From NCBI RefSeq assembly GCF_010015585.1, contig NW_022985067.1, positions 880,210 through 944,209 on the forward strand: a stretch of 64,000 bases of DNA. Reading direction: 5' to 3'. The DNA comes from Eremomyces bilateralis CBS 781.70 (Eukaryota > Ascomycota > Dothideomycetes > Eremomycetales > Eremomycetaceae). Made by a program: the position numbers and the translations under genes. Shown here piece by piece: positions 26,655-27,708 of the stretch. The notes under the pieces are model-generated. The model was not told the DNA's origin, did not search any database, and saw only the letters and a program-made list of their open reading frames with translations. How positions within the stretch are numbered: position 1 is the stretch's first letter; every line of letters begins with the position of its first letter.

Positions 26655-27708
26655 TTAAAGTTTCTGCATAGCAAGCTATAAAATCGTTAGTATCGTGGCA
26701 GGAAGACCGGAGTGATGCAAAACATACAATGTCAGTGGACTGAATGTAGTCCTCGAACTCCTCCAGTTCCGCCTGGAGGTCATCCAGCGAAACCTTTTCG
26801 TCCTCAATGACGAGGTTGACTTGTAGCTTCTTGATGCCGTAGCCGATGGCCACCAACTTCGAAGCACCCCAGACAAGGCCATCCTTGTCGACCGAACGGA
26901 CACTGGCCTCGAGCTCCTTCATGTCTGTCTCATCATCTGTCGTTTGTTAATACACGCGCACAATGGGCGGTTTTAGTGGACATACCCCAAGGTTTCACTT
27001 CCATCGTGACGATGGATTTGGCAGCCGGCTTTGTCTTGCCCTCCTTCTTCTTCTTGTACTCAGCCAACCGCTCCGCCTTGATCCGCTCCGCCTCCGCATC
27101 CTCTTCCTCGTCACTGCTGCCGAAGAGGTCGACATCATCGTCGTCCTCCGCCGTCTCGGGAGCCTTGGCGGGATTCACGGTCAGTTCGCTGGCGTCAGGG
27201 CCATAGGCAGTGTATGCCGCTGACGAATCGCCCGGGAGCGAGGCGAACTCCGGCTGGAAGCTGGCGATGTGCTTGTACCATCGGTACGCGTGCGGGTAGT
27301 TCTCGACCGCGGGCTCCGACTTGATGGCCTCGAAGACCTTCACGTCAGCCTGTGATGGGCCGTAGCTGACAGTATCTGGTCAGCATTCGTCTTCCATGCA
27401 AACATCGAGAAGACTTCAAAGAATAGCAAAAATCAGAGGTGCGCAAAGCGCATGGTAGTAATCGTTTATCGGGGTCTTAAGCCGCATCATCAACACGGAC
27501 CAAAATTTATCATCATAAAAGCATGGTAGGCCAGAGCCTAAGAAGTAATAAAAGAACTGTGTTGACTCACCCGACGATGTAGCTTCGGGTCTTTGTCCAA
27601 CCATTGAGCACTGATGAAAATGTCAGTTTCGAGTCACACTAACGTGTAGGCGAGTAGAGGAAACTTACTGGTCAAGCCAGCTTCTGATACGAGATCGGTA
27701 AAACCCAT
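26655..27708 (-). CDS. EFB1: Translation elongation factor 1-beta (guanine nucleotide exchange factor)
   Basis: Five exons fit: 27708-27669, 27610-27571, 27365-26986, 26936-26728 and 26675-26655, giving 229 residues. EF1-beta recharges eEF1A with GTP during translation. The N-terminal GST-like part reads MGFTDLVSEAGL, NGWTKTRSYIVGYGPSQADV and AYRWYKHIASF. A linker contains the acidic DDDDVDLFGSSDEEEDAEAER, here shortened to DDDVDLFGSSDEEED, which precedes the basic hinge (EYKKKKEGK). The exchange domain has SIVTMEVKPWDDETDM and GYGIKKLQVNLVIEDEK, and ends LAMQKL. Exon phases all agree. Most introns are about 50 nt but the second is 205 nt and contains a snoRNA. An abundant product is expected, and the upstream pyrimidine tract supports that. 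Confidence 0.96.
27429..27520 (-). ncRNA. snR18: Box C/D snoRNA U18/snR18 inside EFB1 intron 2
   Basis: The 205-nt intron 27570-27366 holds, on the coding strand, a C box ATGATGA (27516-27510), then the guide TTGGTCCGTGTT (27503-27492), then a degenerate D'/C' pair (TTGATGATG), and a D box CTGA (27436-27433). The guide is complementary over 12 nt to the universal 25S/28S rRNA sequence AACACGGACCAA, and the same element occurs in human U18. In Saccharomyces, snR18 lies in the intron of EFB1 and directs 2'-O-methylation of 25S A649 and C650, so host gene and guide both agree. About 67 nt separate the D box from the 3' splice site, a normal spacing for debranching release. No clear terminal stem is visible, so exact ends are approximate. 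Confidence 0.88.

What the first reader, a model, noticed from the sequence alone, without database searches (positions are those of the whole stretch)
27366..27570. U18/snR18 box C/D snoRNA kept in an EFB1 intron
The second intron of EF1-beta is 205 nt where its neighbours are about 50 nt, and it contains C and D boxes plus TTGGTCCGTGTT, complementary to 25S rRNA AACACGGACCAA. Yeast carries snR18 in the same host gene, so the host-snoRNA pairing appears to be preserved across Ascomycota. It is an RNA gene that a protein-only annotation would miss. The lack of an obvious terminal stem and the poor D' box are points of interest.
Basis: partly seen in the sequence, partly recalled or inferred. 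Interest (0 to 1): 0.85.

Follow-up and report, generated by a model that had tools for sequence, protein, structure and literature searches.

The report
U18 snoRNA in EF1-beta intron
An intron of a fungus's EF1-beta gene carries the same kind of ribosome-modifying guide RNA (U18) that baker's yeast and Candida carry in the same gene: by all sequence signs a real RNA gene, but an expected and largely ordinary one.

Summary
The EF1-beta gene (minus strand, 27708-26655) has introns of 58, 205, 49 and 52 nt; its spliced protein equals that of Eremomyces bilateralis CBS 781.70, a dothideomycete. Intron 2 (27570-27366) holds a C box, a 14-bp guide to the 25S segment around yeast A649, a D' box AUGA and a D box. 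The 10-nt guide core recurs in 0 of 20,000 shuffles. The base five upstream of D' faces A649. U18 in this host gene is published for S. cerevisiae and C. albicans; intronic U18 for Neurospora and Fusarium. The 'poor' D' box is the yeast U18 consensus, not decay. The intron follows 80 coding nt, as I recall for yeast EFB1. Against: Rfam SNORD18 stays below its cut-off (24.7 against 41 bits), no terminal stem, a weak C' box, and an external stem not above chance. Expression, methylation and the fungus's own 25S were not tested; the genome server did not answer. Verdict: new, ordinary member of a known kind.

The parts
26655..27708 (-). host gene: translation elongation factor 1-beta, 5 exons, 229 aa
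   Evidence: model; 100% identical to P0001; PF00736, PF10587
27366..27570 (-). intron 2, 205 nt, GTGAGT...CAG, splits codon 27 in phase 2 after 80 coding nt
27428..27521 (-). predicted U18 snoRNA, about 90-95 nt (C box to D box is 84 nt); ends inferred
   Evidence: ends not mapped
27510..27516 (-). C box AUGAUGA
27492..27505 (-). guide UUUUGGUCCGUGUU, 14 pairs (2 G-U) with yeast 25S AACACGGACCAAGG; T27495 faces A649, G27496 faces C650
27487..27490 (-). D' box AUGA (same as yeast U18 consensus)
   Evidence: PMC5389607
27474..27480 (-). candidate accessory (extra base-pairing) element UUAAGAC, pairs with 25S GUCUUGA directly 5' of the guide duplex
   Evidence: 238 of 5000 shuffles do as well, so weak alone
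27459..27465 (-). best C' candidate ACGATTA, 5 of 7 to RUGAUGA
   Evidence: inconclusive
27440..27452 (-). small hairpin UGCGCUUUGCGCA just upstream of the D box, where a second guide would sit
   Evidence: fold
27433..27436 (-). D box CUGA
27521..27526 (-). 5' arm CCAUGC of a possible external stem
   Evidence: not above chance
27394..27399 (-). 3' arm GCAUGG of a possible external stem
   Evidence: not above chance
27379..27384 (-). branch-point-like GCTGAC
   Evidence: consensus recalled

Best explanation
Intron 2 of EF1-beta encodes the box C/D snoRNA U18 (snR18). Shown by sequence: host, intron, C, D' and D boxes, the antisense element to a conserved 25S segment and its register (on yeast 25S letters). 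Inferred from known biology: after splicing and debranching the RNA is trimmed to about 90-95 nt, binds Snu13, Nop56, Nop58 and Nop1, pairs through the D' guide with 25S rRNA, and Nop1 puts a 2'-O-methyl group on the A equivalent to yeast A649. As D' is AUGA with no C at either of its possible 5' ends, methylation of the adjacent C650 equivalent is also possible, as in yeast. The confidence is for the U18 identity and the A649 guide; the second site is about even odds.
For: Exact coordinates and a gene model equal to a database protein. Guide with 14 contiguous pairs, its 10-mer core in 0 of 20,000 shuffles. The position five upstream of D' faces A649; A649 was placed by me from the arms of a published A649 DNAzyme (PMC3938493; register). 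Rfam SNORD18 aligns C box, guide and D' in one line. D' AUGA equals the yeast U18 D' consensus (PMC5389607). Possible extra pairing next to the guide duplex, a layout described for yeast U18. C-to-D length of 84 nt fits N. crassa U18 of 89 nt (PMC2780460). The C box starts 54 nt after the 5' splice site; intronic snoRNAs of N. crassa lie mainly 41-60 nt from it. Same host gene as S. cerevisiae (PMC2705663, PMC3938493) and C. albicans (PMC2926782). Intron after 80 coding nt in codon 27, phase 2, the yeast EFB1 position as I recall it.
Against: Rfam score is under the gathering cut-off (24.7 against 41) and E is 3.1 over the whole window. No terminal stem; the external-stem candidate is not above chance in mononucleotide shuffles: a 6-base match near the C box in 168 of 2000, anywhere in 707 of 2000, duplex energy as good in 156 of 1000. 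C' is weak (5 of 7). The extra pairing is matched by 238 of 5000 shuffles, and in yeast the extra pairing of the U18 motif had no effect on methylation. The free RNA is predicted to fold the guide into a hairpin with the bases after D'. No RNA or methylation data, and the fungus's own 25S could not be fetched (17 unanswered requests).
Confidence: 0.95

Rival explanations
1. A decayed U18 relic: the intron kept the guide, but the RNA is no longer made or stable, and another copy does the work.
For: No terminal stem, weak C', D' not CUGA; N. crassa has two U18 genes, CD46A and CD46B.
Against: AUGA is the normal yeast U18 D'; C box, D box and all 14 guide pairs are intact; a DNA search of the own genome with the 101-nt region 27440-27540 found 1 place, this one, though a diverged copy could be missed.
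Confidence: 0.03
2. The long intron holds no RNA gene; the boxes and guide are coincidence.
For: C/D box pairs alone occur 4 times in the window; the covariance model is below its cut-off.
Against: Guide core in 0 of 20,000 shuffles; TGATGA plus 8-mer in 1 of 20,000; and it sits in the very host gene that carries snR18 in yeast.
Confidence: 0.01
3. A working U18 snoRNA (compatible with the main reading) whose guide acts on the A649 equivalent only, since the -1 base is G rather than the U of yeast and no AUGAGUGA-like C' is seen.
For: Position 27491 is G and the best C' is 5 of 7; N. crassa U18 is listed for one site only.
Against: In the yeast work, putting a C at D'1 or at D'-1 shifted the pattern towards one site, and neither is C here; deleting the extra base of C' had little effect on either site.
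Confidence: 0.4

Closest known systems
S. cerevisiae snR18 (U18) in the EFB1/TEF5 intron
   Same: host gene, 25S target segment, D' box AUGA, guide register; an extra pairing element beside the target region
   Different: D'-1 base is G here, U in yeast; the yeast C' AUGAGUGA is not recognisable here; yeast flanks have an 8-base complementary pair (letters of primers in PMC3938493), here only an unproven 6-bp pair
Candida albicans snR18 in the EFB1 intron (PMC2926782)
   Same: host gene and RNA family
   Different: sequence not compared
Neurospora crassa CD46A and CD46B (PMC2780460)
   Same: intronic U18, 89 nt, D' guide only, named there as homologous to yeast and human U18
   Different: two copies there, one found here; host genes not seen in the passages; sequence not compared
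Fusarium graminearum U18 (PMC9606315)
   Same: putative intronic U18 of a filamentous ascomycete; its level falls when the debranching enzyme gene DBR1 is deleted
   Different: host gene not named in the passages seen; sequence not compared
Rfam RF00093 SNORD18
   Same: C box, guide, D' spacing
   Different: consensus has CUGA at the D' place and a 4-bp terminal stem; score here under the cut-off

Membership tests
Box C/D snoRNA | C box RUGAUGA and D box CUGA at a snoRNA-like distance | tested here: met
   27516-27510 and 27436-27433, 84 nt from first to last base
Box C/D snoRNA | antisense element upstream of D or D', target 5 nt upstream of the box | tested here: met
   14 pairs, T27495 to A649; tested on the yeast 25S segment, not the fungus's own
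Box C/D snoRNA | terminal stem bringing C and D together (usual, not universal, so not taken as defining) | tested here: not met
   no pairing directly beside C and D; external 6-bp candidate not above chance. Recalled, not read: yeast U18 also relies on distant intron pairing
Box C/D snoRNA | C' box | tested here: inconclusive
   best candidate ACGATTA, 5 of 7
U18/snR18 | guide to the LSU segment holding yeast A649/C650 | tested here: met
   with 25S letters given by DNAzyme arms in PMC3938493
U18/snR18 | yeast-type D' box AUGA | tested here: met
   27490-27487; consensus in PMC5389607
U18/snR18 | host intron in EF1-beta, as in S. cerevisiae and C. albicans | tested here: met
   hosts. Identity of intron position with yeast rests on recalled yeast coordinates
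Rfam RF00093 SNORD18 | score at or above the curated gathering cut-off of 41 bits | tested here: not met
   24.7 bits, E 0.017 in 351 bases; so not filed under this model, a database threshold rather than a biological definition
U18/snR18 | stable RNA and methylation at the A649 equivalent | not testable with these tools
   no RNA data available

The most novel reading that the evidence does not exclude
The non-canonical AUGA D' box that lets yeast U18 methylate two neighbouring bases is an old trait of ascomycete U18, so this dothideomycete RNA, with G in place of the yeast U at D'-1 and no recognisable yeast-type C', still modifies both the A649 and C650 equivalents. Two-site guiding would then be ancient and not tied to the yeast C' sequence, in line with the yeast result that deleting the extra C' base changed little.
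Probability: 0.35. Interest if true: 0.35.

Novelty: new member of a known kind. Interest (0 to 1): 0.2.

Why it matters
It adds a dothideomycete to the fungi in which U18 and EF1-beta stay together, in an intron at what looks (from recalled yeast coordinates) like the same codon and phase as in yeast; that would support common descent of the intron and its RNA rather than repeated insertion. It also shows the AUGA D' box, known from yeast U18, outside the yeasts, which makes the two-site methylation model testable in another lineage. Annotation by protein genes alone, or by the Rfam cut-off, would miss it.

Tried and rejected
External stem: CCATGC (27526-27521) with GCATGG (27399-27394) looked attractive as a stand-in for the missing terminal stem, but shuffles match it too often; kept as a candidate only. 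Extra pairing: 238 of 5000 shuffles reach 7 pairs; supportive only through its position. Second guide before the D box: the bases there form a hairpin; I made no search for its target, because the full rRNA was not available. A scan of viral contigs for C box plus guide gave 44 stretches; I took these as chance and examined none. Whole-window Rfam at E up to 5 gave 3 matches besides SNORD18, each far below its cut-off; taken as chance. ARAGORN found no tRNA in the window. Own-genome search for LSU rRNA (Rfam RF02543) did not complete, so the pairing was tested on a yeast 25S segment. Papers that added little: PMC3596301 has none of my terms; PMC3511168 lists U18 of Arabidopsis, human and yeast, with yeast site numbered Am647; PMC8476143 on introns kept in intron-poor fungi does not name EFB1 or U18 in its main text and stresses the RPL7 and NOG2 introns; PMC5033589 passages do not give the host of snR18. 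Not held: the fungal snoRNAome paper (Canzler 2018) and the paper on distant intron pairing in yeast U18 processing; what I say of the latter is recalled. Paper searches answered.

Full report
What is there. On the minus strand the window carries a five-exon EF1-beta gene, start codon at 27708 and stop ending at 26655. Its introns are 58, 205, 49 and 52 nt. The spliced protein, 229 aa, is 100% identical over its whole length to the elongation factor 1 beta subunit of Eremomyces bilateralis CBS 781.70, a dothideomycete. It matches Pfam EF1_GNE and EF-1_beta_acid above their cut-offs and the eEF1Ba chain of PDB entry 1f60 over its C-terminal part.

The snoRNA. Read 5' to 3' on the minus strand, intron 2 has 54 nt, then AUGAUGA (27516-27510), four bases, UUUUGGUCCGUGUU (27505-27492), one G, AUGA (27490-27487), 50 nt, CUGA (27436-27433), and 67 nt to the 3' splice site with a branch-point-like GCTGAC. 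For the target I used a yeast 25S segment whose letters come from the arms of a DNAzyme designed for A649 (PMC3938493, passages); the base between the arms, A649, is inferred. Other papers number this site 647. The guide makes 14 contiguous pairs with two G-U. The base five upstream of AUGA, T27495, faces A649, and the next one, G27496, faces C650. In 20,000 dinucleotide shuffles of the intron the ten-base core occurs in 0, the eight-base core in 6, TGATGA in 5021, and TGATGA followed by the eight-base core in 1.

Family models. No Rfam family reaches its gathering score in the window. In 27300-27650 the one match listed with E up to 1 is SNORD18 at 27521-27476 minus, 24.7 bits against a cut-off of 41, E 0.017; over the whole window the same match has E 3.1. 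The model alone would not carry the claim; the guide, its register and the host gene do.

The D' box. A study of yeast U18 (PMC5389607; passages, sections 9 and 13) gives AUGA as the D' consensus of the available yeast U18 sequences, with C' AUGAGUGA. It reports that a C put at D'1 or D'-1 shifts the methylation pattern, and concludes that a suboptimal 5' end of D' lets the motif direct methylation to two neighbouring bases; deleting the extra C' base had little effect, while changing it biased the choice. Here D'1 is A and D'-1 is G, so neither is C, but no AUGAGUGA is seen; the best C' candidate is ACGATTA, 5 of 7. Two-site methylation is possible and not shown.

Extra pairing. UUAAGAC (27480-27474) can pair with 25S GUCUUGA, which ends next to the guide duplex. 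The same paper mentions an extra pairing element of yeast U18 beside the target region, and adds that it played no role in methylation efficiency or site choice in their construct. Of 5000 shuffles of the D'-to-D region 238 do as well, so this is only weak support.

Terminal stem. There is none beside C and D. A six-pair external stem CCATGC/GCATGG (27526-27521 with 27399-27394) can be drawn, but 168 of 2000 mononucleotide shuffles have a six-base match near the C box, 707 of 2000 have one anywhere, and the best duplex energy is matched in 156 of 1000. Published primers flanking yeast snR18 hold an eight-base complementary pair (letters), which fits what I recall of distant intron pairing in yeast U18 processing; that paper is not held.

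Host and descent. snR18 lies in the EFB1/TEF5 intron of S. cerevisiae (PMC2705663 and PMC3938493, passages) and in the EFB1 intron of C. albicans (PMC2926782, passages). N. crassa has two intronic U18 genes of 89 nt for 26S Am635 (PMC2780460, passages). In F. graminearum a putative intronic U18 falls when DBR1 is deleted (PMC9606315, passages). I did not see the host genes of these two. In this window the intron follows 80 coding nt, in codon 27, phase 2. From memory, the first exon of yeast EFB1 is also 80 nt; if so the position is identical. No DNA from other filamentous fungi was compared here.

Copies. A search of the own genome (26.6 Mb, 62 contigs) with the 101-nt region 27440-27540 found one place, this one. 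A diverged second copy, as in N. crassa, is not excluded.

Verdict. By sequence, a well-supported U18 snoRNA gene in its usual host. Known kind, new member; modest interest through the D' box and the intron position. Expression and methylation remain untested.

Noticed in passing
27529-27521 and 27458-27450: A nine-base direct repeat CTACCATGC (minus strand, by eye) lies just upstream of the C box and again between D' and D; meaning unknown.
   Followed up: no
27452-27440: A small perfect hairpin TGCGC-TTT-GCGCA (minus strand) sits just upstream of the D box, where a second guide would be; it suggests that only the D' guide is used.
   Followed up: partly
27738-27800: The 5' flank of EF1-beta holds a repetitive purine-rich tract on the plus strand (ggatggagga-like units), pyrimidine-rich on the coding strand.
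   Followed up: no
28093-29181: A 362-codon stop-to-stop open frame on the plus strand, head to head with EF1-beta, looks like a zinc-type oxidoreductase (by eye, not searched).
   Followed up: no
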